From a virus: a DNA stretch of 30,294 bases. Made by a program: the position numbers and the translations under genes. Position 1 is the first letter of the stretch. Every line of letters begins with the position of its first letter. Of the stretch, positions 5,160 through 23,080 are shown one piece after another. Location: IMG/VR virus record IMGVR_UViG_3300035698_008821, positions 1-30,294 of that record; one strand, given 5' to 3'. The notes under the pieces are model-generated. The model was not told the DNA's origin. It saw only the letters and a program-made list of their open reading frames with translations, and did not search any database.

Positions 5160-5921
5160 ATGGTGATGCTTGACAGTAGGATTGGGTCAAAAGAACTACT
5201 ACCACTATTTGCTTCTGGTAATGCAAGACTGTGTAGATTAGAATATGGGGATGCATGTTTCACAGGCAATGGGGGGGATGGAATACCTTATGTCATTGGG
5301 ATTGAGAGGAAGCGCGTCACGGATCTACTCAATTGCATCATGTCCGGAAGATTATCAGGCCATCAGTTAATAGGATTACTTAATTCATATAATGTGGTGT
5401 ACCTTGTAGTGGAGGGGCTGTATAGGTCAGATGCATCCACAGGGTTGCTGCAATTGTGGAAGAAGCCTGTGGACAGATATGGGTACTCTTCCCGCAAAGG
5501 GCATTGGGAAATAGTGACACTGGGTACAAGGCAGTTCATGGCACGGGACATGTGGGCATTTCTGAATACACTGGAAATAGTAGCTGGGATACACATCTGG
5601 TACACAACATCCGTAGAGGAGACAGCGCAATGGATACAGGCCCTGCATTACTGGTGGACGAATAAGGAGTATGAGGATCATCGGGGGCATTTACAGGCAC
5701 ATACGCAGAATCAGGTGGTGTTGACAAAGCATACATTGGCGCGGAGGACTGCAGCACAGCTTAAGGGGGTAGGATGGGAGAAGGCGCAGGTGCTTGCGAA
5801 GAAGTTTGTGTCTGTGGATAATATGGTGCATGCAAGTGAGGAGGACTGGAAGAGTGTTGAGGGGATAGGGATTAAGTTGAGTAGGAGTATACATGCTGAG
5901 TTGAGAGGGAGGAAAGTATAA
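5160..5921 (+). CDS. ERCC4/XPF-type structure-specific nuclease with C-terminal HhH
   Basis: This 253-residue protein has the ERCC4 nuclease pattern: an early Asp (D5), GD at residues 30-31, and GIERKRVTDLL (48-57) carrying the ERK...D signature, followed by SGRLSGHQ, the usual helix of XPF/Mus81-like nucleases. Residues ~200-250 (KGVGWEKAQVLAKKF, then VEGIGIKLSRSI) form a tandem helix-hairpin-helix DNA-binding domain. Such enzymes cut branched DNA such as flaps, forks or recombination intermediates. Phage forms are short and lack the helicase domain, as here. It would act after the recombination module at 2942-4268. An ATG two codons downstream is an alternative start. Confidence 0.85.
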   Translation: MVMLDSRIGSKELLPLFASGNARLCRLEYGDACFTGNGGDGIPYVIGIERKRVTDLLNCIMSGRLSGHQLIGLLNSYNVVYLVVEGLYRSDASTGLLQLWKKPVDRYGYSSRKGHWEIVTLGTRQFMARDMWAFLNTLEIVAGIHIWYTTSVEETAQWIQALHYWWTNKEYEDHRGHLQAHTQNQVVLTKHTLARRTAAQLKGVGWEKAQVLAKKFVSVDNMVHASEEDWKSVEGIGIKLSRSIHAELRGRKV

Positions 5922-6640
5922 TGGATAATAAACTTGAAGTAATTGTAAAAGCATCAGGGTTAGAAGGTACAAAAGCACAAATCATACTATCTAAATTCCA
6001 AGGGTACTTTGAAATAGCTGCAGAATGGGAAGCCAAAGCAGCCACCATACAAGTAGCAGACGCATCTCAGAAGGCTGATATAGCAATGGCGAGAGTGGGT
6101 AGATTATTCCTACGAGATAAGATAAATGATGTTGAGAAAGAACGTAAGAAGTTGAAGGAGCAGTCATTACGTGAAGGGCAGTGCATTGATGGTATAGCAA
6201 AGACACTCAAAGGACTTCTTATACCTATACGAACACATATGGATGAGCAGGAACACTTTGTGGAGTTGAAAGCAGCAAGAGAGGCTGCGGATAAGCAACG
6301 TGCTATAGATAAGGTGTTGGAAGCTGAGCGGTTAGAGAAGGAGAAAGAGGAAAGGGAAGAGCAGGAGAGAATTAGAATGGAGAATATGCAATTGAGAAGA
6401 GAAGCAGTAGAAAAAGAGAAGCTGGTAGAACAGGAACGAAAAGATGCACAAAGGGAAATACAGAAGGCAGAGGATGCTGCTGCTAAAGCAATTGCGGATG
6501 CCATGGAGTCTATGGATGTTGTTACGGAAGTTGCAATGGAAGGTCAGTTGGAATTGGAAGTAACTTGTCCAGATTGTGGAAGAGTATTCATACCTTGTAA
6601 AGAAAAACCTATAATGAAGTTGAGAGGGGGAAAGGTATAA
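5921..6640 (+). CDS. Coiled-coil phage protein with C-terminal zinc knuckle
   Basis: The 239 residues begin with a helical domain. A middle section (RKKLKEQSLREGQCIDGIAK, then LLIPIRTHMDEQEHFVE) resembles phage proteins of the DUF1351 type. Residues ~120-190 are a long Glu/Lys/Arg-rich coiled coil. Residues ~205-235 contain CPDCGRVFIPC, a CxxC...C zinc-binding motif. It starts within TAATG of the nuclease gene. DUF1351-like proteins are common in phage recombination regions, but their biochemical role is not established. The family match is by pattern and moderate. Confidence 0.6.
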   Translation: MDNKLEVIVKASGLEGTKAQIILSKFQGYFEIAAEWEAKAATIQVADASQKADIAMARVGRLFLRDKINDVEKERKKLKEQSLREGQCIDGIAKTLKGLLIPIRTHMDEQEHFVELKAAREAADKQRAIDKVLEAERLEKEKEEREEQERIRMENMQLRREAVEKEKLVEQERKDAQREIQKAEDAAAKAIADAMESMDVVTEVAMEGQLELEVTCPDCGRVFIPCKEKPIMKLRGGKV

Positions 6641-6837
6641 TGCTAGATGTAGAATATATAAAAAATCATGCTTGTGACATAGCCCATGATTGGACATGCG
6701 AGGAAGAAATAATTAATGCTATTAATGCATGTAGTACACAAGAGGATTTATATAAAGTATCTAAACAGGTATATTGTATTAGTAGTTATCATGTTACAGA
6801 TTTTATCGCACGGGAGTTGAGAAGGGGAAAAGTATAA
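6640..6837 (+). CDS. Hypothetical protein (65 aa)
   Basis: This 65-residue acidic protein has three Cys residues and no recognisable domain. It begins and ends in the repeated junction element (TAATG overlaps on both sides), with the C-terminus Leu-Arg-Arg-Gly-Lys-Val. It looks like a small insert gene between the coiled-coil protein and the next hypothetical gene. Confidence 0.65.
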   Translation: MLDVEYIKNHACDIAHDWTCEEEIINAINACSTQEDLYKVSKQVYCISSYHVTDFIARELRRGKV

Positions 6838-7235
6838 TGTCGATCATTAATGTGTATGAGACGGGAAGAAATGGAAAGTCAATATCGGGCATGGCAGATG
6901 TTGAGCAGGTGTACTACAGGCTGTGGAAGAAGTATGGTATGAGGCTATGGGGGAAAGTATACTATGACAAACAAGGAGTTGTATTCGGACGGTGTAAAGG
7001 AGAAGTGGAAAGTGATGAGATCATGGAGCTTTGCATGAATCATTATATTGCATCCATTGATGCTGTTAAGTCAGGCATGGAAGTTAATCAAGCCATGATA
7101 GACTTGTTGCTACTGGATGGTGATGATGTACTGACTACTCCTATGCAAGCTGTCAAATTAGTGATATTGAAATTAGCAGCCAGGAAGAAGGGGATGAGTG
7201 TGGAGGAATTGGTAGGAGAATTATGTGATGCCTAA
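6837..7235 (+). CDS. Hypothetical protein (132 aa)
   Basis: The 132-residue product is mixed alpha/beta. It starts in the third junction element and its end overlaps the glycosylase gene start by about 10 bases. The segment VYYRLWKKYGMRLWGKVYYDKQG is aromatic and basic, and the C-terminal 60 residues are probably helical. I do not recognise it. Its place between repair genes suggests a DNA metabolism role, but nothing in the sequence proves it. Confidence 0.65.
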   Translation: MSIINVYETGRNGKSISGMADVEQVYYRLWKKYGMRLWGKVYYDKQGVVFGRCKGEVESDEIMELCMNHYIASIDAVKSGMEVNQAMIDLLLLDGDDVLTTPMQAVKLVILKLAARKKGMSVEELVGELCDA

Positions 7236-7830
7236 GCGCACATGCATATGGGCAGAATTATGCGGTCTATGTAATAAGCCCGTGTGGGGGTGTGGACCTA
7301 CGGATTCCATAATAATGATAGTAGGCGAGGGTCCAGGATATCATGAGGACAAGCGTGGCCTACCATTCATTGGGAAGTCCGGGAAGGAATTGGATGTATA
7401 TTGCAAGAGATTTGCGAATATCGACAGGTATGCATGCTACATAACAAATGTTATATGCTGTAGGACAAATGATGACGACCGAGACCCTACACAGACTGAG
7501 ATCGAGATATGCAGCAGCCAGTATCTGGTGCCAACTCTACAGACAGTCAAGCCGCGATTCATAATAGCAGCAGGGGCAGTATCAGCCAGATGGTTTCTCG
7601 GGGATGCTGTGGATATGCATAAGGTACATGGGTTTGCATACTCATGGCAGGATCATGATGTGAGGGCAACAGTTATACCAGTGTATCATCCAAGTTATGG
7701 GCTGCATGCTACGAGGAATATGAAGTATGTGCAGGAGGACTTTGAGGCAGTGGGGAGGATAGTGAGAGGAAGACAGGGGATAAAGCAGGGGGATAAGATA
7801 AAGGGGGAGTATAAGTTATGGATAAAATAA
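7225..7830 (+). CDS. Family 4-like uracil-DNA glycosylase with Fe-S cluster
   Basis: This 201-residue protein has GEGPGYHED at residues 34-42, the water-activating motif of family 4/5 uracil-DNA glycosylases, followed by GLPFIGKSGKELD (45-57). YHPSYGL (154-160) is the second catalytic motif with His155. Four Cys residues fit a 4Fe-4S site: CGLC (13-16), C79 in ICCR, and C96 in EICSSQYL, the usual spacing for family 4. The enzyme removes uracil from DNA. In a phage this may guard against cytosine deamination or dUTP incorporation by the nearby polymerase. Start may be either ATG in ATGATG; both overlap the upstream gene. Confidence 0.88.
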   Translation: MMPKRTCIWAELCGLCNKPVWGCGPTDSIIMIVGEGPGYHEDKRGLPFIGKSGKELDVYCKRFANIDRYACYITNVICCRTNDDDRDPTQTEIEICSSQYLVPTLQTVKPRFIIAAGAVSARWFLGDAVDMHKVHGFAYSWQDHDVRATVIPVYHPSYGLHATRNMKYVQEDFEAVGRIVRGRQGIKQGDKIKGEYKLWIK

Positions 7831-8090
7831 ACATGATTGGAGATGATAGAGTAGATGTGTATGAGGATAACGGAAATCAACTTCTATTTATTTTTGTTAC
7901 CTGTGGTCAGGTGGTCTGTCTTCCACGTAGTGTTGGAACTAAATTGTGTGTAGATTATGGATTGCATATTAACACATTTGCTGCAAATAAGGAGAGAACA
8001 AGGTTGGCACATGAAGCGCATCTCGCACGGGAAGCTGAATTGGAAGCACTAAGAAAAGATCCAAGTTTGAAAGAAATGTATTCATTATGA
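7818..8090 (+). CDS. Hypothetical protein (90 aa)
   Basis: This 90-residue protein has an N-terminal beta-rich part (DDRVDVYEDNGNQLLFIFVT) and a helical C-terminus rich in Ala, Arg and Glu. It overlaps the glycosylase gene at its start and the polymerase gene by four bases (ATGA) at its end. No family is recognised. The tight coupling suggests it is made together with the polymerase N-terminal half. Confidence 0.65.
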   Translation: MDKINMIGDDRVDVYEDNGNQLLFIFVTCGQVVCLPRSVGTKLCVDYGLHINTFAANKERTRLAHEAHLAREAELEALRKDPSLKEMYSL

Positions 8091-9145
8091 ATCTTATCGC
8101 CATAGACTGTGAATGGGAAGCACATCATGCGCCCTGGAGTATACAATGGTCAGAGCATGTTGGAGAAGGCTGGGTATGGCTGGCAGACTCAGGTATACCA
8201 TTTCCTATGAAGGATGTGTTGGAGCATCCAGACACTCTCACGATATTCCATAACTCATTAGCGGACTTGCCCATACTCCACAAGCTTGGCATATATCCAT
8301 CCCACTTCACAGACACCATGATCATGGCGTACCTGTTGGGAATAGGACGCATAGGGCTTAAGGTGCTGGCATATAGATTTGCAGGTATGAATATGCGGAG
8401 TTATCTGGATGTTGTCCGGCCAGCTACAGAACGCAAGACAGCAGCGTATGTGGGGAGGATGATGGATATGGACTGGCCTGATCCGGATCCGGTAATAACG
8501 ATTAAGCCTACGGGAGAGCAGCATGTAGTATGGGGGCAGAATATAAAGAAGAGGGTAGGGGCATATATGAAGAAGTTGGCTAAGGGTACAGCCAAGATGA
8601 CTCCGCATGAGTACTGGATGGATAAGAAGCGGGAAGCTGATCGGGATATGGTGGAGCCTGTGCTTGGGGAATTGGAAGAAGGCTACCTGAGTGAAGTGCC
8701 ATTGGATGAGGCTGTGGAGTATGCAGGGCAGGATCCAGATGCCACACTGCGCATATACTCCATGCTTGATGCAATGGTGCAGGAACTGGGAGTGCAGGAG
8801 GCGTTGGAACGGGATTTGGATTGTGTTGAGATGGTGGTGGATATGATGGATAATGGGATGTTGCTGGATGTGGAGTACTTTAAGGAGTTGGAAATTGAGT
8901 TCCTGCTCAAGAAGGAACGGCTATTGGGCGAGGTGGAGGAGTTGGCCGGGCAGTATGTGAATCCAAATAGTCATTTGCAGGTGAGGGCTGCGTTGAATAA
9001 GCAGGGTGTTGTGGTGAAGGATACAAGCTCAGACACGCTGGATAGATTACGGGATGTGCCGTTGGTCATGGCGATACAAAACTACAGGGCTACGGATAAA
9101 CTACTGGGAACGTATGTTAAGAAGATGCCGAGGATGGTGTATTGA
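8087..9145 (+). CDS. polA: DNA polymerase I family A, N-terminal half (3'-5' exonuclease and thumb)
   Basis: This 352-residue protein is the first part of a family A polymerase. Exo I is IDCEWE with D7 and E9. Exo II is FHNSLADLPIL with D60. Exo III is EYAGQDPDAT with Y212 and D216. This is a complete DEDDy proofreading set. Residues ~230-350 form the thumb, ending NYRATDKLLGTYVKKMPRMVY. In intact polymerases the next residues lead straight into the TGR...NLQNIP motif; here a stop codon intervenes and the motif appears in the gene at 10036. It lacks a 5' nuclease domain, which is common in phage. The product needs the C-terminal half for synthesis but might proofread alone. Confidence 0.92.
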   Translation: MNLIAIDCEWEAHHAPWSIQWSEHVGEGWVWLADSGIPFPMKDVLEHPDTLTIFHNSLADLPILHKLGIYPSHFTDTMIMAYLLGIGRIGLKVLAYRFAGMNMRSYLDVVRPATERKTAAYVGRMMDMDWPDPDPVITIKPTGEQHVVWGQNIKKRVGAYMKKLAKGTAKMTPHEYWMDKKREADRDMVEPVLGELEEGYLSEVPLDEAVEYAGQDPDATLRIYSMLDAMVQELGVQEALERDLDCVEMVVDMMDNGMLLDVEYFKELEIEFLLKKERLLGEVEELAGQYVNPNSHLQVRAALNKQGVVVKDTSSDTLDRLRDVPLVMAIQNYRATDKLLGTYVKKMPRMVY

Positions 9146-10039
9146 TGAAAGAATATATTAATAAAGTAATATGTGGAGATTGCCTTGAAGTGATGAAGGA
9201 GATACCAGACAAGTCAATACCAGTTTTGTTCCCTATGTTCCGCATGGCGTGGTGAGCTTGGACAAGAACCCATATACCAATTTTATATTTCACACCTGAT
9301 GATGGTAATGGAAGAGTGTCGCAGGGTGCTGAAAAAGACAGGAACGCTGTGGGTTAATATAGGAGATAGTTATAGTGGAAGTGGTCGTGGGCCTACTGGC
9401 AAAAATGGAATAGGCAATCAAACAAAAAGACAAGGATTTGATACGCCCAAAATCACTCCACAATCTGCTCTTGCCAAATCCCTTGTTGCCATCCCTGCAC
9501 GGTTCCAGATTGCTATGATTGACAGTGGATGGGTATGCCGTAATGAGATAGTGTGGTACAAGCGGAACTGTATGCCTTCATCGGCAAAGGATAGATTCAC
9601 GGTGGACTTTGAGCCTATTTACTTCTTCACAAAGCAGGGGAAGTATTGGTTTGAACAGCAGAAAGAAAATACTACTGCTCCGGCAGGTAAACCTCGACCA
9701 TTTTCTAAAAAGGGAAATGTAGACAGAAACGATGTCGGTAGGATATATGAACCAAATGATAGCGGAGAGCGTAATTGCCGTACAGTCTGGGACATTACAA
9801 CCAAGCCATTCAAGGGAGCACACTTCGCAACCTTCCCGCCTAAACTTGCCGAGCGCATGATACTTGCCGGATGTCCTGAAGGCGGAACAGTACTTGACCC
9901 ATTCGGTGGTTCTGGTACTGTGGGTATGGTAGCAAAGAAACATAACAGGAATTATATACTCTTGGATGTTAATCCTGAGTATTGTGAAATGGCGCAGAAG
10001 CGTATAGATAACACACCAATACTAAGGTTATCAGAATGA
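9145..10039 (+). pseudogene. Beta-class DNA methyltransferase inserted in polA, frameshifted and missing its SPPY motif
   Basis: The gene begins at ATG 9145, overlapping the polymerase stop, with a typical start (NKVICGDCLEVMKEIPDKSI), then stops at TGA 9253-9255. A second frame continues from about 9245 (WRGELGQEP...ISHLMMVMEECRRVL) to 10039, with TLWVNIGDSY, RNEIVWYKRN, TTKPFKGAHFATFPPKL and the SAM-binding DPFGGSGTVGM near its end. This order fits N6-adenine/N4-cytosine methyltransferases of the N6_N4_Mtase family. The catalytic (D/S/N)PP(Y/W) expected between IPDKSI and GELGQEP is not found in any frame: only about 34 bases remain where roughly 60-70 are expected. An internal deletion with frameshift is likely. 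The open part from ATG 9299 (246 aa) could be translated but lacks the catalytic motif. Assembly error is an alternative. Confidence 0.75.
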
Positions 10040-10923
10040 ATAGACTCCACACATACCTATCCATGACACGCACAGGTACTGGACGACTGGCTTCCAGTTC
10101 GCCGAATCTTCAAAATATTCCAACTAGGTCTAAGGATGGTCAGAAGATACGTAAAGGGTTTACTGCATCCCCAGGCTGTAGCCTGCTCAGTATCGACTAT
10201 GGTGGTATTGAGATGCGGGTTACAGCCCATATGTCCCAAGACCCATACATGATGCAGATATTCTGGGAAGATGAGGATATCCACACCATGACAGCTCGTA
10301 GGATGTTCCAGAAGCCTGAGCCAATGCCAATCGACCCTAAGAAGGAGCGGTATCCGGCTAAGCGCACAGGATTTGGCGTACTCTACGGGATTACACCTGC
10401 AGGACTGGTGGATGTGTTCTACCATGATGGTGTGACGACATTTACTGAAGGCGACTGCGAGATGTTCATTCAGGACTGGTTCGATACATTCCCGGGAGTA
10501 GTTAAGTGGATAGTGTCAGTACATGCTGAGGCACGGCGTACTGGCATGGTACGGGATATGTTTGGACGGGTGCGACATACTCCGGAAGTGTATTCAGCAT
10601 TACAATATGTACGTGAAGCTGGATTGCGCCAGGCTGTGAATGCTCCTATTCAGTCAACTGCCCAAGGTATATTGAAGGAAGCGATGAAGCAACTGGTTGA
10701 ACCTTATAGAGCATGGAAGGCTGGAGGATTTCATGTGTTACCGTTGATGCAGATTCATGATGAGTTGATCTTCGAGGTTGAGGATGGGATATTAGAATAT
10801 GTTATCCCACAGTTTACACAGATCATGGTGGAAGCTGTTGAGTTGAGTGTGCCCATGAAAGTAGATGCTGAGGTGGGTAAAAATTGGGGTGACTTGAAGG
10901 AATGGGAGGGAGAATATGCCTGA
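10036..10923 (+). CDS. polA: DNA polymerase I family A, C-terminal half (palm and fingers)
   Basis: This 295-residue protein carries the polymerase active site. TGTGRLASSSPNLQNIP lies at residues 13-29. Motif A is SIDYGGIEMRV with D54. Motif B is the O-helix R105...K109...F113...Y117 with exact canonical spacing. Motif C is QIHDELIFEV with H241, D242 and E243. All catalytic residues are present, so the protein is not degraded. It starts at ATG 10036 inside the methyltransferase stop (ATGA), so it is translated by coupling. The first residues (NRLHTYLSMTRTG) match the strand that normally follows the thumb, so almost nothing was lost at the break. It would pair with the product of 8087-9145 as a two-subunit polymerase. 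Confidence 0.92.
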   Translation: MNRLHTYLSMTRTGTGRLASSSPNLQNIPTRSKDGQKIRKGFTASPGCSLLSIDYGGIEMRVTAHMSQDPYMMQIFWEDEDIHTMTARRMFQKPEPMPIDPKKERYPAKRTGFGVLYGITPAGLVDVFYHDGVTTFTEGDCEMFIQDWFDTFPGVVKWIVSVHAEARRTGMVRDMFGRVRHTPEVYSALQYVREAGLRQAVNAPIQSTAQGILKEAMKQLVEPYRAWKAGGFHVLPLMQIHDELIFEVEDGILEYVIPQFTQIMVEAVELSVPMKVDAEVGKNWGDLKEWEGEYA

Positions 10924-11306: not shown

Positions 11307-11653
11307 AGTTAGAAGACGTTACAATGGTACAGGCAACAATGTTAGAAGCTGGTATGAAAATGCGCCAGGAAGCCAAGGAGATGGAGGATAAGGCCAAGGC
11401 ATTGAAGAAGGATGCAGATGAGATTATGCTCCCTATACTGGCGACATTGTATGATATGAAGATAGCAGATGATGTGTTGGGGAGTGTGTCTGTGGTTACA
11501 TCCAATAGAACATCATTCTCGCAGAATGCAGCTAAGGAAACACTATTGAATGCTGGTGTTTCTTCTGGCATTATAGCTTCAGCTTGGACAGAAGCACTAT
11601 CTATAAAATCTTCCACATCTGTCCGCTATACTAAGCCAAAGGAGCAGAAGTGA
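11303..11653 (+). CDS. Hypothetical coiled-coil protein, Gp157-like layout
   Basis: The 116 residues begin with a long charged helix (KMRQEAKEMEDKAKALKKDA). A beta-rich part (LGSVSVVTSNRTSF) and a C-terminal segment with a terminal strand (SVRYTKPKE) follow. The layout of coiled coil plus short beta region resembles phage Gp157-type proteins, but similarity is loose. It ends on the GTG start of the small terminase gene. The function is not known. Confidence 0.6.
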   Translation: MKLEDVTMVQATMLEAGMKMRQEAKEMEDKAKALKKDADEIMLPILATLYDMKIADDVLGSVSVVTSNRTSFSQNAAKETLLNAGVSSGIIASAWTEALSIKSSTSVRYTKPKEQK

Positions 11654-12291
11654 GTAATGTGAATTACAAGGAGATGGCACCAGGTACAAAGGAAACCATT
11701 GCTCAACGTGATGCCTTTACCCATTGGGTAAACATGGGTAAGGGCAGAACTCTGATTGGAGTACGTAAGCAGTTTGGTATGTCCAGTGCCACCATAAAAA
11801 AGTGGCACCATTTCTTCAAGTGGGATGAGAGGCTGCATGCAATGGAGTCTGAGGGGGAAGAAGTTATCCTGTTCAAGCCACCACAGTCTGCTAGGGACAC
11901 ACAGGACCTGGTGGAGTTGCGGGAACTCATAGCACGACTGAAGCGCATGGTGGATAGTGCATTCACTATCAATCCAGATACAGGCGAAGAAGAAGCATCA
12001 TTTGCCATAACTGATGTGAACAACTTTGTAAAGGTCACAAAGGAATATCGGGACTGTGTGGAGACATATGCTCGGCTACAGTCAAATCCAGCAGGAAAGA
12101 AGAAGGGTAAGGAAACCAATAAGATCGCGGATGTGGTAAACATGTTCATCGGGGGAGCAACTCAGGGGGAGCGACTTGAATTTATCGAGAGTACAGCAGA
12201 TAAAGGCATCACTGACTCAGGAGGAAATGGAAAACCTGAGCCAACAAGTGCGGAAGCAGATTATAAGGACATACCTGACAAAAGGGTGTAA
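11650..12291 (+). CDS. terS: Terminase small subunit
   Basis: This 213-residue protein begins at GTG 11650, overlapping the previous stop. Residues ~15-60 contain a helix-turn-helix (WVNMGKGRTLIGVRKQFGMS, then ATIKKWHHFFKWDERLHAME) that would recognise packaging sites. Helical oligomerisation segments follow (DLVELRELIARLKRMV). The C-terminus is polar and overlaps the large-subunit gene by up to 116 bases. Small terminase subunits bind phage DNA and hand it to the motor. The call rests on the HTH, size and position directly before TerL. Confidence 0.8.
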   Translation: MSNVNYKEMAPGTKETIAQRDAFTHWVNMGKGRTLIGVRKQFGMSSATIKKWHHFFKWDERLHAMESEGEEVILFKPPQSARDTQDLVELRELIARLKRMVDSAFTINPDTGEEEASFAITDVNNFVKVTKEYRDCVETYARLQSNPAGKKKGKETNKIADVVNMFIGGATQGERLEFIESTADKGITDSGGNGKPEPTSAEADYKDIPDKRV

Positions 12292-13696
12292 GACTGCTGG
12301 GGATGTGAAGGAGTTCCTCGCGGCATTACAGGAGCCAAAGGTGGGTACGAAGGTGAACTGTGGTAGGGCAGATCATGTATCACCCTTCAGCGCACTTAGT
12401 GATATCCTATTGGATAAGGTGTTATACTATATTATATGGGCATGTAGGGCAGGTAGCAAGACGTTCCTGTATGGTGGATTGGATACGTGGTATAAGTCAT
12501 GTGTGAATCCAAGGTTGGAGACGAAGATCTTGGGAGGAAGTGAAGGGCAGTCACAGTTATCGTACGAGGCTATTGCTACATTCTGGCTGCTTACGGATAT
12601 GGAGAAAGAGTTCCTGGTGCGTCCTATGCTCAAGCAATCTGCCCAGTGGAAGAATGGGAGTAAGGTGAGTATATTGACCGCATCCAGTAAGAGTGTGCGG
12701 GGGCCACATCCTCAGATATTGAAACTGGATGAGGTGGATGAGATTGATGAGACAATATACAATGATGCGTTGTCACAGCCTCAAGCCAAGTACGGTTATC
12801 CAAGTTCCCTTGGACAGTTCTCGACCAATCACAATATAGATGGTCAGATGGATCGGGCTATTGAGAAGGCAATTACTGTTGGCACTCCTGTGTATAAGTA
12901 CTGCGTATGGGAAATATTGGAGTCCTGTCGGGACTACTCCTGCTCCACTTGCAAACTAGCAGCTATTTGCCCGGGCACACACATGAAGGAAGCTGATGGG
13001 TACTATACTATTGAAGATTTCATTAGCAAAATGAACACACTGTCATGGGATGCTATCCAGAGGGATTGGCTGTGTGTTAAGCTCGGGCGCGGGGATCTGG
13101 TATATCAGGAGGAGTATAATGAGGATGTGAACTTGGTGAACAGGCCACTGAAGTTGGATGAGCCTGTTGGATTAAGTCTTGACTGGGGAGGTACGGATCC
13201 ATTCTCAGCAGGTGTATGGCAGAAGATGGATGTAGATGCATGGCTGAGAGTGACAGAGGTGTTCCTGCCATCTGTGGGAATGTCTGCGACTAATCCTAAG
13301 TTCATAGCACAATGTAAGAGTAAACCGTGGTGGAAACTTGTGAAATGGATTGTATATGATAACTCCAGACCGGATCTTATAAATGAGTGGAAAGGAGAAT
13401 TTGCAGGTAGGAGTATACAGTTCATACCAGCAGATAGGACGGATATTGATGCTGGCATAGAATGTGTGAAGAATGCAATGTGTCCTGCATTAGGTGCACC
13501 ATTGCTGTTTGTGAATAGGTCATGTGCCAATTGGAGAAGGGAGATCAGACAGTATTCAGTGAATCCTAAGACGGGGAAGATCATTGATAAGCACAACCAT
13601 ACGATGGATGAGACACGCTATTTTATTCAGAAGATGATTAAGAGGGTGGATACAGGATACTTTTCGATGCTTGAACAGGACGTGAGTCCAGAATAA
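12176..13696 (+). CDS. terL: Terminase large subunit (packaging ATPase and nuclease)
   Basis: This 506-residue protein has a Walker A at 89-96 (ACRAGSKT), Walker B at 181-189 (ILKLDEVDE) with the coupling Glu, and a C-terminal RNase H-like nuclease with D336 (LSLDWGGTD), D395 (IVYDNSRPD) and D478 (HTMDETRYF). It drives DNA into the prohead and cuts it. Between ATPase and nuclease lies a Cys cluster, C251, C256, C259 and C265, that may bind zinc or iron-sulfur. The start is uncertain: TTG 12176 has a GGGGGAG site but overlaps TerS by 116 bases; ATG 12227 removes 17 residues. Confidence 0.92.
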   Translation: MNLSRVQQIKASLTQEEMENLSQQVRKQIIRTYLTKGCKTAGDVKEFLAALQEPKVGTKVNCGRADHVSPFSALSDILLDKVLYYIIWACRAGSKTFLYGGLDTWYKSCVNPRLETKILGGSEGQSQLSYEAIATFWLLTDMEKEFLVRPMLKQSAQWKNGSKVSILTASSKSVRGPHPQILKLDEVDEIDETIYNDALSQPQAKYGYPSSLGQFSTNHNIDGQMDRAIEKAITVGTPVYKYCVWEILESCRDYSCSTCKLAAICPGTHMKEADGYYTIEDFISKMNTLSWDAIQRDWLCVKLGRGDLVYQEEYNEDVNLVNRPLKLDEPVGLSLDWGGTDPFSAGVWQKMDVDAWLRVTEVFLPSVGMSATNPKFIAQCKSKPWWKLVKWIVYDNSRPDLINEWKGEFAGRSIQFIPADRTDIDAGIECVKNAMCPALGAPLLFVNRSCANWRREIRQYSVNPKTGKIIDKHNHTMDETRYFIQKMIKRVDTGYFSMLEQDVSPE

Positions 13697-18246: not shown

Positions 18247-18267
18247 CCCCAATAAGGAGGTTTGCAG

Positions 18268-21132
18268 ATGATGACAATGCGTGATGTAGCCAAACAAAGA
18301 CGTATTGTTGTGCCTGTAGAAAAACCACCCAAGCAAGTACCTCTTACACTCAAAAGCATAAATCACAAACCAAAAATCATATTACCGAAAGATGATGTTG
18401 TAGTTATCACTATGGCTGATATGCCAAAGAGGGCGCGGATCATGCAAGTGGTGGCAAAGGAGCAGATAAAGGTACAGCATGGGGCTGTTAATGCTGCTGC
18501 TCACTCTGTGCGTAGGCTTAGGTATGGTAGGACTGCGCCCACACCATTCTCAACGGCAATGCATAATGGAGCATGGGCAGGTAAGAGGGCGTTTATAGTA
18601 GGTGGAGGACAGTCGCTTAAGGACTTTGATTGGGACTTGCTAAAGGGAGAGCTTGTCATAGGGGTTAATAGGGCATTTGAGAAGTGTCCATGTAATATCA
18701 TGTTTAGCATGGACTTAAAGCTGTGGTCATATTATGAAAGGGGGGAGCTTGGTGAAGTGGCAAAGGAGTCGTTCCGGACATTTGCGGGGTATAAGGTGTG
18801 GTCGGTACTACCGGGATTTATACTACCGGAGGAAGCGTACTATATACTCAGGCCGAATAGGGCAACAGCGTATCAGACATGGACGGTGGAGGAACTGGAT
18901 ACGATCAATAACAGTGGATATGGAGCTATGCAACTAGCTATTGCACTTGGAGCAAACCCGATCTACTTACTCGGATTCGACATGGCTGGATCTGGAACCG
19001 GTAAGCAGACTTGGTGGCATGACGGATATCCAGTAGTACAAGGTGATGGAATATATTCAAGTATGATAACACACTTCAATGCCTTTGCAAAGCGTCAAGT
19101 GGGGAGTGGATTGAATATAATTAATCTTAATCTGGACAGTGCATTGAATTGCTTTCCTAAGCAGAAACCAAAAACCATATTTAGGCATAAGGTACAACGG
19201 CCACTACTGGTTAGCTTTAATGTACCAACGGAGAATAGCGCACCATACCTGAAGGAGAATATTACAGGATATGGACTGGAATCAGATATATGTAGGATAA
19301 ATGATCAGGGTGGTTGGGCAGATAACATACAGTACAAGGTGAAGTTTATACTGGATAAGTTGCTGGAGCATAAACGGGCAATATTGTGGATGGATCCGGA
19401 CATGGTTATGAATACTTATCCAGAAGTGTTTGATGACTTCGAGGGGGATATAGGGTATACTACGGCTATTGCAGATCATAATAAGATTGAATTGGTTGGG
19501 TCGTTGCTATATGCGGCATATAATGAGCGTGTTATATCATTGCTGCGGAGCTGGTCAAACATATTGGAGTCAGAGAATAGTGTGGTGGGTAAGCCATCAA
19601 TACAACAAGCTATAGAGTTATGGGGTAGCCAGTATGATGTGAAGAGTATGCTGGTTGACAGGAGTGTATGTGTGCATGGAGTAGCAACGGATAAGGTTAC
19701 GCTGATTACACCTACTGGGGACAGACCTTTTGCATTCAGCTTGTGCCAAAGATGGATAGCGAACCAGACACGGAAGTATGACCAATGGATTGTGGTGGAT
19801 GATGGTAAAGTACCAATGAAGCCCCCCACAGGTGTTACGTATGTGAGGAGGGAGCCACATGCTACAGATCCACCACATACGCTTAATGCTAATTTGAAGG
19901 TTGCTATACCATATATACTGGGTAACAAGATTATAATTATTGAGGATGATGAATATTATGCCCCAAGATATGTGGAGGTGATGGCTGATAAGATGGTGGA
20001 CTATCAGGTAGTAGGGATTATGTTGAGTAAGTATTATCATGTGGGTAATTGTGGACATGCGCGACATGCTAATACTATCCATGCATCCCTAGCACAAACT
20101 GGGTTTACTTCCAAGTTCCTGCATACATTCGAGGCGTTGCTTGGTCTGGACCTTAATACATATCTGGATCTGCACATATGGCGCACAGCGAGGAATAATG
20201 GAATATCCAAGTTATATGAGGATAAGGACAGGTCATTGTATGTTGGGATAAAGGGGTTGCCTGGAAGACCAGGTATAGGCGTTGGCCATCAGATGAGTAT
20301 GTATAATAAGCGTGTGGACACCAGTAAGGCTATATTGCGTAACTGGATACCCAAAGAGGATGACTGTAAAGTATATGGGGACATCATAAGTGGTAAATTA
20401 AATAATAGTAATTATGCTACATACTTCCCCTCCATTACTGGGATCACGGTGTGCCAGAATACTATGGACTTAATGCGCAGAGCGTATGAGTCTGTGCGCA
20501 AGTTCCATCCGGATATGCCCATAGTAATTGTGGATGGGTCCACACCAGGCGATCCTTGTGATGTATATGTGAGGAGTATTGCATCGAACTTGACCACGGT
20601 ATTGTCATTGGGGTACAATGTTGGTCATGGGCGAGGCATGTGTATGGGGATTGATGCAGCCTCCACACCATATGCATTGATATTTGATTCAGACATAGAG
20701 ATGCTGAAATCCCCGGTAAATGCCATGTATCATATGATGGAGGCTGATACATTTGGAGTAGGGTATACTGAGAAGACTGATGCGCAAGGATATGAGTGGG
20801 GTGCACGGGCGGGAGCAGGAGTGCATGATAAGGGTGAGTCTATGAGAATGCTGCATCCGTATTTCCATCTTATAAATATCAATAACTACAATAAGTTCCA
20901 TCCGTACGTCCATCATGGAGCACCATGCTATCTTACAGCATTGGATATACATAAGCAAGGGTTGTCGGATAAGATTATAAAGGAGTTCCCGGGACTTGGA
21001 CACTCTTCTGGTAAGGGTTGGTGCTGGACAGGTAAGCCGAGGGAATACATCAGACATGATCCCGCTGGTACACGTAAAGTTAGAAAGAATAGTGGACTGG
21101 GCGAGATAGAAGGGGATTGGGATACAAAATGA
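18268..21132 (+). CDS. Four-domain glycosyltransferase fusion: DUF115-like plus three GT-A-like domains
   Basis: This protein has 954 residues from ATG 18268, 7 bases after AAGGAGG; TTG 18262 is also open. Residues 1-105 are a basic linker-like region. About 106-295 is a DUF115/MptE-like domain (GGGQSL 112-117, GYGAMQLAIALG, YLLGFDM). About 311-470 is a GT-A-like domain with WMDPDM (374-379) as a metal-binding DxD. About 476-690 is a family 2-like glycosyltransferase with TPTGDRPF, VVDDG and IIEDDEYY. About 724-940 is a further family 2-like domain with VIVDGS and IFDSDIEM. Each GT domain could add a different sugar, so one protein might build an oligosaccharide. DUF115 proteins act in flagellin and surface glycan pathways (such as Maf). 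Acceptors are unknown. Confidence 0.82.
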   Translation: MMTMRDVAKQRRIVVPVEKPPKQVPLTLKSINHKPKIILPKDDVVVITMADMPKRARIMQVVAKEQIKVQHGAVNAAAHSVRRLRYGRTAPTPFSTAMHNGAWAGKRAFIVGGGQSLKDFDWDLLKGELVIGVNRAFEKCPCNIMFSMDLKLWSYYERGELGEVAKESFRTFAGYKVWSVLPGFILPEEAYYILRPNRATAYQTWTVEELDTINNSGYGAMQLAIALGANPIYLLGFDMAGSGTGKQTWWHDGYPVVQGDGIYSSMITHFNAFAKRQVGSGLNIINLNLDSALNCFPKQKPKTIFRHKVQRPLLVSFNVPTENSAPYLKENITGYGLESDICRINDQGGWADNIQYKVKFILDKLLEHKRAILWMDPDMVMNTYPEVFDDFEGDIGYTTAIADHNKIELVGSLLYAAYNERVISLLRSWSNILESENSVVGKPSIQQAIELWGSQYDVKSMLVDRSVCVHGVATDKVTLITPTGDRPFAFSLCQRWIANQTRKYDQWIVVDDGKVPMKPPTGVTYVRREPHATDPPHTLNANLKVAIPYILGNKIIIIEDDEYYAPRYVEVMADKMVDYQVVGIMLSKYYHVGNCGHARHANTIHASLAQTGFTSKFLHTFEALLGLDLNTYLDLHIWRTARNNGISKLYEDKDRSLYVGIKGLPGRPGIGVGHQMSMYNKRVDTSKAILRNWIPKEDDCKVYGDIISGKLNNSNYATYFPSITGITVCQNTMDLMRRAYESVRKFHPDMPIVIVDGSTPGDPCDVYVRSIASNLTTVLSLGYNVGHGRGMCMGIDAASTPYALIFDSDIEMLKSPVNAMYHMMEADTFGVGYTEKTDAQGYEWGARAGAGVHDKGESMRMLHPYFHLININNYNKFHPYVHHGAPCYLTALDIHKQGLSDKIIKEFPGLGHSSGKGWCWTGKPREYIRHDPAGTRKVRKNSGLGEIEGDWDTK

Positions 21133-21791
21133 TAAACTTGTACAGATTTAGGGGGAATAACTTCGGGGATAATCTGAGTACGTATCTTACGGAGAAGATA
21201 AGTGGTGAGAAGGTTGGAGCTACTGATGGACAAGTGTATGGAGTGATAGGGAGTGTGCTGGAGTGGATACCACGCAATACTGAGGTATGGGGACTGGGAT
21301 TCATGCGGGATACATCAATACCTCCACATAAGAAGTTTAAGGTGCATGCTGTAAGGGGACGGTTTACCAGGAATATATTGCTTAACAATGGTGTGGAGTG
21401 TCCGGAAGTATATGGTGATCCTGCGTTACTGCTGCCACATTACTATACTCCTAAGCCAATGAGAAGGTATGCTTTAGGAGTTGTACCACATTATATGGAT
21501 GCTACAATGCCTGCAATTGATCGGTATAAAAATAACCCTAATGTACTGATAATAAATGTATGGGATGATGTGGAGAAGATAGTGGATGAGATATATAGTT
21601 GTAAGTCAATATTATCCAGTTCCCTGCATGGCTTGATAGTAGCAGACGCTTATAGTATTCCTGCAGAGTGGAGGGAATGGTCTGATAAAGTTGTTGGCGA
21701 TGGTTTTAAGTTCAGGGATTACAAATCTGTAAGATATCAGGTTGACCTCGATAAACTCATGAGTGTATGCCCATTTAGAAAGGATGCATGA
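21129..21791 (+). CDS. Polysaccharide pyruvyl transferase-like protein
   Basis: The best start is ATG 21129, overlapping the previous stop (ATGA); a TTG at 21117 is in frame. The ~220-residue product has the family pattern: NFGDNLSTYL near the N-terminus, VYGDPALLLP in the middle and SSSLHGLIVADAYSIP near the C-terminus. This family (PF04230) transfers pyruvate ketals or, in several members, sugars to glycans. It is shorter than cellular members (usually over 300 residues) but keeps the landmark motifs. Its overlap with flanking genes places it in the glycan cassette. The donor cannot be read from sequence. Confidence 0.82.
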   Translation: MINLYRFRGNNFGDNLSTYLTEKISGEKVGATDGQVYGVIGSVLEWIPRNTEVWGLGFMRDTSIPPHKKFKVHAVRGRFTRNILLNNGVECPEVYGDPALLLPHYYTPKPMRRYALGVVPHYMDATMPAIDRYKNNPNVLIINVWDDVEKIVDEIYSCKSILSSSLHGLIVADAYSIPAEWREWSDKVVGDGFKFRDYKSVRYQVDLDKLMSVCPFRKDA

Positions 21792-23080
21792 TGCGAATAG
21801 CCTTCGTAGAAACACCGAGTCCGTGGCTGGTAAATAAGAGCGGGAGTATATCGCTTGGGCTATTATACTTGGCCACAGTAGCAGAACTTGCAGGGCATGA
21901 GACAAGACTGTATAGGCCAAAGACTGTAGAAGAGTTTGCAATATTTGAATATATGGATATTATATGCCTTGGTGGAACTACGTTGGAATATCCAATGAAT
22001 GTAAAATGTGCACAATGGGTACGTGACCACTTCCCTAATATAAAGATATTCCTCGGCGGAACGCATGCCACTGCACTTCCACATGATGTAATGGCTTGTG
22101 AGCTATTTGATAAGATATGTGTTGGTGAGGGTGAGAATACTATATTGGAGATGATAAGTGATGTTAGGACGGGTAATGATAAAAAGTTATATCTTAATCA
22201 AGGGCTTATCAAAGACCTTGACACCATCCCATTTCCGGATCGTACACTGGTGGATGGTGAGTATGGGAAGAATATATTTGCACATGGGAAGCAGCATCAT
22301 GGTGATAGAAGTGAGAACATTATAACTTCTCGCGGATGTCCTAACAACTGTGCCTTCTGTGCATCCCGTAGCATGTGGTGTGGGAAGGTGAGGTTCAGGT
22401 CAGTGGAGAATGTCGTTGCCGAGATGATACAGATAATGGAGTCCACAGGGATAAGGCAATTTGGCATATGGGACGATACATTGACCTTAAGCAAGAAGAG
22501 GTGTCTGAAGCTGTATGACATGCTCAAGGACATGAATATTGCATGGAGGTGTCTGGCTCGGGCTGACTCGTTGGATGCTGAGTTATGCAAGGCCTTAGCA
22601 GATGCAGGATGCAAAGAGGTGTGCCTTGGTATAGAAAGCGGCGATCAGAGAGTGTTGGACTTTTTGGATAAGAATACCAGCAAGGAGAGCATGCTGCAGG
22701 GATGTAAGCATGCTAATGACGCAGGATTGAATATACGTGGGCTGTTCATGACGGGTACACCTGGGGAGAGGAAAGGCACACCTGAATTGACCATAGATTA
22801 CATGAGGGAACTTGGACTTAACGCCATCAGCTTATCCACATTCACACCGCTTCCAGGAAGTCCTATATGGAATGACCCGGATAAATATAATTGTGAAATA
22901 CTAAGTACTGATTTTGAAATGTACAATGAGTATTCATATATTATGAAAGATGGTGAGAAAGTGCAGAATGAATATGAACCACTAATCCACAACAGGTTTC
23001 TCACAATAGACCAGATGAAGGATAATGTCCGGCGCATGCGTAAGTATGTGGATGATACAAACCTATTTAATAAGGGGTAA
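21788..23080 (+). CDS. B12-binding radical SAM enzyme
   Basis: This 430-residue protein has an N-terminal Rossmann-like B12-binding domain (~1-130; MDIICLGGTTLEYP, KIFLGGTHATALP, CVGEGENTI) and a radical SAM core with CPNNCAFC (C184, C188, C191) coordinating the 4Fe-4S cluster. IWDDTL and CLGIESGDQRVL continue the barrel, and a C-terminal region follows. Such enzymes (BchE/class B methylthiotransferase-like, hopanoid and natural-product methylases) methylate unactivated carbons or rearrange substrates. In a sugar cassette it might C-methylate a sugar or lipid. It is coupled on both sides (ATGATG overlap upstream). Either ATG at 21788 or 21791 may be used. Confidence 0.88.
   Translation: MMRIAFVETPSPWLVNKSGSISLGLLYLATVAELAGHETRLYRPKTVEEFAIFEYMDIICLGGTTLEYPMNVKCAQWVRDHFPNIKIFLGGTHATALPHDVMACELFDKICVGEGENTILEMISDVRTGNDKKLYLNQGLIKDLDTIPFPDRTLVDGEYGKNIFAHGKQHHGDRSENIITSRGCPNNCAFCASRSMWCGKVRFRSVENVVAEMIQIMESTGIRQFGIWDDTLTLSKKRCLKLYDMLKDMNIAWRCLARADSLDAELCKALADAGCKEVCLGIESGDQRVLDFLDKNTSKESMLQGCKHANDAGLNIRGLFMTGTPGERKGTPELTIDYMRELGLNAISLSTFTPLPGSPIWNDPDKYNCEILSTDFEMYNEYSYIMKDGEKVQNEYEPLIHNRFLTIDQMKDNVRRMRKYVDDTNLFNKG

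What the first reader, a model, noticed from the sequence alone, without database searches (positions are those of the whole stretch)
8087..10923. Family A DNA polymerase split in two by an inserted DNA methyltransferase
The 3'-5' exonuclease and thumb (8087-9145) and the palm and fingers (10036-10923) are separate genes with every catalytic motif intact. A methyltransferase gene sits exactly between thumb and the TGR...NLQNIP motif. Both junctions are overlapping start/stop signals (TGATG and ATGA), so the three genes are coupled, and there is no space for a self-splicing intron and no intein splice motif. Split phage polymerases and free-standing homing endonuclease insertions that split essential genes are known (for example in T4-like phages), but I do not know of a methyltransferase as the insert in polA. 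The halves may reassemble as a two-subunit enzyme.
Basis: partly seen in the sequence, partly recalled or inferred. Interest (0 to 1): 0.85.

Follow-up and report, generated by a model that had tools for sequence, protein, structure and literature searches.

The report
Phage DNA polymerase split by insertion
A virus of microbes carries its DNA-copying enzyme as two separate genes with a (now broken) DNA-methylation gene wedged between them, and related viruses are split at a second place by other small genes, so this enzyme seems to be cut repeatedly at tolerated loops and to work as two pieces.

Summary
One correction: the methyltransferase is broken. About 60 residues, including the catalytic SPPY motif, are missing and the frame is shifted, so it is not an intact third gene. 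The nearest relative (L259) has an unsplit polymerase and fixes the insertion: FPNMV-DGEG-RIHT versus MPRMV-Y*...M-N-RLHT. Gene order around it is conserved, both halves fall in one clade, and no second polA is present. In a model of an unsplit relative the cut lies in a short thumb-palm loop. No intron, intein or homing endonuclease was found. Beyond the finding, seven related contigs have the same polymerase split at a second loop, just before motif A, by one to three other small genes, with both halves under purifying selection. Best reading: repeated insertional fission giving a two-subunit polymerase, like Aeh1 NrdA or phage 25 gp43 but in family A and with non-nuclease inserts. The window's own split rests on one contig; assembly and activity are untested.

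The parts
8087..9145 (+). family A DNA polymerase, N-terminal part: 3'-5' exonuclease and thumb (352 aa)
   Evidence: Pfam/PHROG matches; aligns to residues 1-352 of unsplit L026 polA and to unsplit L259
9143..9147 (+). TGATG overlap: stop of exonuclease/thumb ORF and start of methyltransferase
9145..9255 (+). methyltransferase, 5' fragment (36 aa then stop); matches the start of N6_N4 methyltransferases up to just before the SPPY motif
9215..9235 (+). approximate deletion/frameshift point in the methyltransferase; about 64 residues including SPPY missing relative to L266
9299..10039 (+). methyltransferase, 3' part in another frame, with DPFGGSGT SAM-binding motif (the open frame starts a little upstream, homologous from FCSLCSAWRG)
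   Evidence: Pfam N6_N4_Mtase 1.4e-44
10036..10039 (+). ATGA overlap: start of palm ORF and stop of methyltransferase
10036..10923 (+). family A DNA polymerase, C-terminal part: TGR motif, palm and fingers, motifs A, B, C (295 aa)
   Evidence: Pfam DNA_pol_A 3e-80; aligns to Taq/Klenow, to L026 from residue 356 and to L259 at 60%
5160..5921 (+). ERCC4/HHH nuclease, conserved syntenic neighbour upstream
7225..7830 (+). uracil-DNA glycosylase superfamily gene, conserved syntenic neighbour upstream
11650..12291 (+). terminase small subunit-like, conserved syntenic neighbour downstream
12176..13696 (+). terminase large subunit-like, conserved syntenic neighbour downstream (65% to L259, 47-56% to others)

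Best explanation
The virus carries one Klenow-type family A replicative polymerase whose gene was cut in two by insertion of a gene of the kind found elsewhere in the same replication region of its relatives, a site-specific DNA methyltransferase, into the codons of the loop that joins thumb to palm. Shown from sequence: contiguous gene in the nearest relatives, exact site, no intron or intein, both halves with their catalytic residues, no second copy in the contig, conserved gene order around it. Inferred: each half is translated as its own polypeptide from overlapping start/stop signals, and the two chains fold together non-covalently as a two-subunit polymerase, because the cut falls in a short loop. 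The methyltransferase has since lost its catalytic motif and is now dead spacer (or the contig has a local error there). In sister viruses a second loop, just before motif A, has been opened in the same way and filled with other small genes, so this polymerase tolerates and repeatedly receives insertional fission.
For: Two halves match consecutive parts of one Pfam model with a gap of about four columns. Unsplit L259 (palm 60%, TerL 65% identity), L026, L028, L030 and others fix the site. ERCC4-UDG-polA-TerS-TerL order conserved. Both half-trees put the window in one supported clade (palm 99/88, exo 100/98). No second polA in the window or in split relatives. Model of L026 (pLDDT 94.2): the window cut is at residues 352-356, between helix 347-351 and the next strand; the motif-A cut is at 398-401 between two strands; fold is Klenow. 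No intron in Rfam. Seven contigs from five metagenome datasets with a split before motif A and one to three small ORFs between; there dN is 0.08-0.30 while 62-83% of synonymous sites differ. Start/stop overlaps at the ends of the inserts wherever readable. Methyltransferase homologues lie elsewhere in the same gene block in L266 and L028 and beside ERCC4 in Drs3. Precedent: split Aeh1 NrdA is active and phage 25 43A/43B co-purify with polymerase activity (PMC2988022).
Against: The thumb/palm split is seen in one contig only; no relative in IMG/VR shares it. The methyltransferase is damaged just after the split, which shows that something recent, biological or an assembly error, happened there. 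Palm and methyltransferase have weak ribosome sites compared with the strong GGAGG-like sites of most genes in the window. Motif A is DYGGIE rather than DYSQIE. Association of the halves and activity were not tested.
Confidence: 0.7

Rival explanations
1. Assembly artefact: the methyltransferase was joined into the polymerase by the assembler, and the true genome has an uninterrupted polA.
For: Single contig; the insert itself has a frame-shifting deletion; no other contig shows this split.
Against: Both insert ends are exact gene boundaries with overlapping stop/start codons; the four loop codons of the unsplit gene are replaced by a stop and a start, which a chimeric join would hardly produce. 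The same polymerase is split at another site in seven contigs.
Confidence: 0.12
2. The gene is interrupted by a self-splicing intron or split intein and the polymerase is made as one chain after splicing.
For: Introns and inteins are common in phage DNA polymerases; relatives L058, L091, L273, L290, L296 and L317 have long in-frame insertions in polA, and those read through in L058 and L091 have intein-like ends.
Against: No Rfam intron at gathering or relaxed threshold; the methyltransferase sequence fills the whole insert; no extra residues at the end of the first half or the start of the second, so no intein halves; the inner ends carry a stop and a start codon.
Confidence: 0.04
3. The polymerase is dead or dying in this virus: the insertion inactivated polA, and the halves are a pseudogene.
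For: The insert is itself decayed; motif A has lost the usual SQ; the contig may be incomplete, so another polymerase could lie outside it.
Against: Both halves are full length, without internal stops, with catalytic residues kept; in sister viruses both split halves are under purifying selection. A dead gene would not be expected to keep two clean ORFs with start and stop at a loop.
Confidence: 0.12

Closest known systems
Aeh1 nrdA split by mobE ('genes-in-pieces' ribonucleotide reductase) and T4 gene 60 split by mobA
   Same: An essential phage gene is cut by a free-standing inserted gene; the encoded polypeptides together form the enzyme (PMC2988022).
   Different: There the insert is a homing endonuclease; here it is a (broken) N6_N4 methyltransferase, and in relatives small HTH or unknown ORFs. 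The gene is a family A polymerase.
T4-like phages 25 and 44RR gene 43A/43B
   Same: A phage DNA polymerase encoded in two parts with DNA between; the parts of phage 25 co-purify and have polymerase activity (PMC2988022).
   Different: Family B polymerase; the spacer is a seg endonuclease or an untranslated sequence.
Fractured genes with split inteins (Dassa et al. 2009, known from memory and from reference lists; text not held)
   Same: Gene halves separated by an unrelated ORF, in phage-like metagenome DNA.
   Different: Those halves carry split-intein pieces for trans-splicing; none are present here.
Intron- or intein-bearing phage DNA polymerases (SPO1, Bastille and other Herelleviridae introns: PMC11878797)
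   Same: The same gene family is a favourite target of inserted elements; polA relatives L058, L091 and others carry in-frame insertions.
   Different: Those are removed by splicing; the present insert cannot be.
Klenow-type family A DNA polymerase
   Same: Both halves together cover exonuclease, thumb, palm and fingers; the best structural matches of the unsplit relative are Klenow fragments.
   Different: Two genes instead of one.

Membership tests
Family A (PolI-like) DNA polymerase with 3'-5' exonuclease | Exonuclease DxE/Y..D residues, TGR motif, motifs A (D..E), B (K...F..Y), C (HDE) | tested here: met
   motif A reads DYGGIEMR
Insertional gene fission by a free-standing homing endonuclease (Aeh1 nrdA/mobE type) | Contiguous homologue in close relatives, interrupted at one point here | tested here: met
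   L259, L026, L028, L030 unsplit
Insertional gene fission by a free-standing homing endonuclease (Aeh1 nrdA/mobE type) | The insert encodes a homing endonuclease | tested here: not met
   window insert is N6_N4_Mtase; inserts in relatives are HTH or unknown, although the HTH ORFs of L004 and L006 resemble the C-terminal part of a PHROG labelled HNH endonuclease
Insertional gene fission by a free-standing homing endonuclease (Aeh1 nrdA/mobE type) | The two polypeptides assemble into an active enzyme | not testable with these tools
   only single-chain prediction was available; the site is in a loop of the unsplit model
Fractured gene with split intein | N- and C-intein segments at the inner ends of the halves | tested here: not met
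   no residues beyond the polymerase at either inner end
Group I / group II intron | Ribozyme core inside the insert | tested here: not met
   Rfam search, gathering and E-value modes
Active N6/N4 DNA methyltransferase (N6_N4_Mtase, PF01555) | Catalytic motif IV (S/D/N)PP(Y/F/W) and SAM motif in one frame | tested here: not met
   DPFGGSGT present; SPPY absent in every frame and a frameshift between the 5' and 3' parts

The most novel reading that the evidence does not exclude
In this lineage of uncultivated viruses the replicative family A polymerase is an obligate multi-piece enzyme whose gene has two independently opened insertion sites (thumb/palm loop and pre-motif-A loop). These act as landing places for ordinary phage genes, not homing endonucleases, set in at start/stop overlaps so that translation stays coupled; the polymerase gene has become a hot spot of gene acquisition.
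Probability: 0.45. Interest if true: 0.78.

Novelty: new variant of a known kind. Interest (0 to 1): 0.62.

Why it matters
Naturally split DNA polymerases show where a Klenow-type enzyme can be cut without losing function, and here nature appears to have tried at least two places, one of them immediately next to a catalytic aspartate. It also suggests that phage genes in pieces need not come from selfish nucleases: a methyltransferase and small unknown genes do the same. If the halves are active together, the motif-A split would be a striking example of an active site built from two chains and a ready-made split polymerase. The seven motif-A contigs make the idea directly testable.

Tried and rejected
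Self-splicing intron (Rfam, two thresholds, nothing) and split intein (no intein residues) rejected. A three-gene coupled operon with active methyltransferase rejected because the catalytic motif is missing. Search for another contig with the same split: palm, palm-alignment and exo-alignment scans of IMG/VR found none; the single-sequence exo scan found nothing at all. The window's terminase as query found only three distant loci, although tblastn of loci already held showed terminase relatives at 47-65%, so that scan was simply insensitive. Single-sequence structure prediction was useless (pLDDT 34); with an alignment it was good (pLDDT 94). Gene-family scans of the motif-A inserts gave only HTH hits of note. 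The literature search found no family A polymerase split by a non-nuclease gene, but the library is partial and the Dassa 2009 paper was not held.

Full report
What is there. The window is a 30,294-base IMG/VR virus record. ORF 8087-9145 is a 3'-5' exonuclease plus thumb and ORF 10036-10923 is the TGR motif, palm and fingers of a family A DNA polymerase; they cover Pfam DNA_pol_A columns 2-100 and 105-381, that is, consecutive parts with almost nothing missing. Conserved residues are present in both, with one oddity: motif A reads DYGGIEMR where most relatives have DYSQIE(L/M)R. Only these two polA pieces are in the contig.

The insert. 9145-10039 belongs to the N6_N4 methyltransferase family (closest named virus relative Methanobacterium virus Drs3 at 47%; closest contigs L178 and L266 at 50%). 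It is not intact. The frame opened at 9145 gives MKEYINKVICGDCLEVMKEIPDKSI, matching the start of the family, then runs out of register to a stop at 9253-9255. The rest of the protein is in another frame from about FCSLCSAWRGELGQEP. Against L266 (...DCCITSPPYYGLRSY...GQFCSLCGAWRGSLGLEP) about 64 residues are absent, including the catalytic SPPY motif. The 3' part, with its DPFGGSGT motif, has no further damage, so the lesion is recent or is a local assembly error. As it stands the gene cannot make an active methyltransferase, and translation started at 9145 does not run through to the palm gene.

Unsplit relatives. The palm half retrieved 21 loci, and an alignment of palms 80. Mapping both halves by profile HMM shows that most have one continuous gene. 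The closest relative, found with the exonuclease-half alignment, is L259 (IMGVR_UViG_3300013136_000862): palm 60%, exonuclease half 41%, large terminase 65%. It is unsplit and reads FPNMV-DGEG-RIHTKLSMTRTDTGRLASSSPNLQNIP against the window's MPRMV-Y-stop ... M-N-RLHTYLSMTRTGTGRLASSSPNLQNIP. The insertion has therefore replaced about four loop codons and nothing else. The order ERCC4 nuclease, UDG, polA, small and large terminase is conserved between the window and these relatives, and trees of the exonuclease half and of the palm half both put the window in the same supported clade (100/98 and 99/88), so the two halves are not parts of unrelated genomes.

Where the cut falls. An AlphaFold2 model of the unsplit polymerase of L026, made on an alignment of 49 sequences, has mean pLDDT 94.2 and matches Klenow fragment best in the PDB. 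The window's first half aligns to L026 up to residue 352 and the second from residue 356. In the model, residues 352-356 are a loop between helix 347-351 and the next strand, that is, the thumb-to-palm connection. A cut there is structurally mild.

A second, separate split in sister viruses. Seven contigs from five metagenome datasets (L003, L004, L006, L008, L009, L010, L025) have the polymerase interrupted at another point, just before motif A: the first gene ends ...RIRQAFVSERSE-stop (or a close variant) and the second starts MVDCSLLALDYSQIE or similar. For L009 only the second gene and for L010 only the tail of the first are on the contig. L025 has an extra base near the palm start, so its exact start is unclear. 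Between the genes lie one to three small ORFs that differ from contig to contig. Some are shared (L003/L010; L004/L006, an HTH protein; L009/L025), and one has its homologue outside polA in L008. Pfam finds mainly HTH domains; the HTH ORFs also resemble the C-terminal part of a PHROG labelled HNH endonuclease, a weak hint of a homing-endonuclease past. In L004 a stub MINCSLLALDYSQIERRE-stop repeats the palm start, a footprint of repeated insertion. At the insert ends, start and stop codons overlap wherever they can be read. In the model this site, residues 398-401, is also a loop, between two strands. Among these contigs dN is 0.08-0.30 while 62-83% of synonymous sites differ, for both halves, so both separated halves are under purifying selection, although the synonymous distances are near saturation. 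L025's sister L026 and also L030 are unsplit, so this split arose more than once or was undone.

Wider pattern. In other relatives the exonuclease is a separate gene from the polymerase (L066, L067, L071, L083, L319), and several carry long in-frame insertions in polA (L058, L091 with three, L273, L290, L296, L317); those of L058 and L091 were read through and have intein-like ends. The window insert is neither intron nor intein.

Origin of the methyltransferase. The same methyltransferase family sits between ERCC4 and UDG in L266 and between UDG and the exonuclease in L028, and next to ERCC4 in Drs3. It is thus a usual member of this replication block that seems to have moved into polA; this is inference from positions.

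How it most likely works. Shown: contiguous relatives, exact site, catalytic residues kept, no splicing element, no second copy. Inferred: the two polypeptides are translated separately and assemble non-covalently. Precedents exist in other enzymes: split Aeh1 NrdA is fully functional, and phage 25 43A and 43B co-purify and have polymerase activity (PMC2988022). I put 0.7 on a genuine two-piece polymerase here, 0.12 on an assembly artefact, 0.12 on a dead polymerase and 0.04 on splicing.

Novelty. Insertional fission of phage genes is a known kind. Family A polymerase, two cut sites in one clade and non-nuclease inserts make this a new variant; I found no report of it, in a partial library. 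The window's own split stands on a single contig, which limits the score; the motif-A group is the stronger evidence.

Noticed in passing
L003, L004, L006, L008, L009, L010, L025 (polA): polA split just before motif A by one to three variable small ORFs, with overlapping start/stop codons; both halves under purifying selection.
   Followed up: yes
L004:1790-1850: Truncated duplicate of the palm gene start (MINCSLLALDYSQIERRE-stop) upstream of the real one, a footprint of repeated insertion.
   Followed up: partly
L091:2383-7701 (same contig as L281), L058, L273, L290, L296, L317: Long in-frame insertions in polA, three in one gene in L091; L058 and L091 have intein-like ends, at TGRL, inside motif A (DY/SQIE) and in the palm.
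   Followed up: partly
L066, L067, L071, L083, L319: Exonuclease and polymerase domains encoded as separate genes, up to about 4.4 kb apart.
   Followed up: no
window 5897-5929, 6616-6648, 6813-6845: Near-identical leader (AGTTGAGAGGGRGGAAAGTATAATG) before three consecutive genes (5921, 6640, 6837), suggesting duplicated gene-start cassettes.
   Followed up: no
window 18262-21132 and 21788-23080: Glycosyltransferase family 2 domain (the protein also matches a sialyltransferase PHROG) and a B12-binding radical SAM protein in the virus's late region.
   Followed up: no
L025:5960-5990: Single extra base near the palm start, probably a sequencing or assembly error, which blurs where the palm gene begins.
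   Followed up: partly
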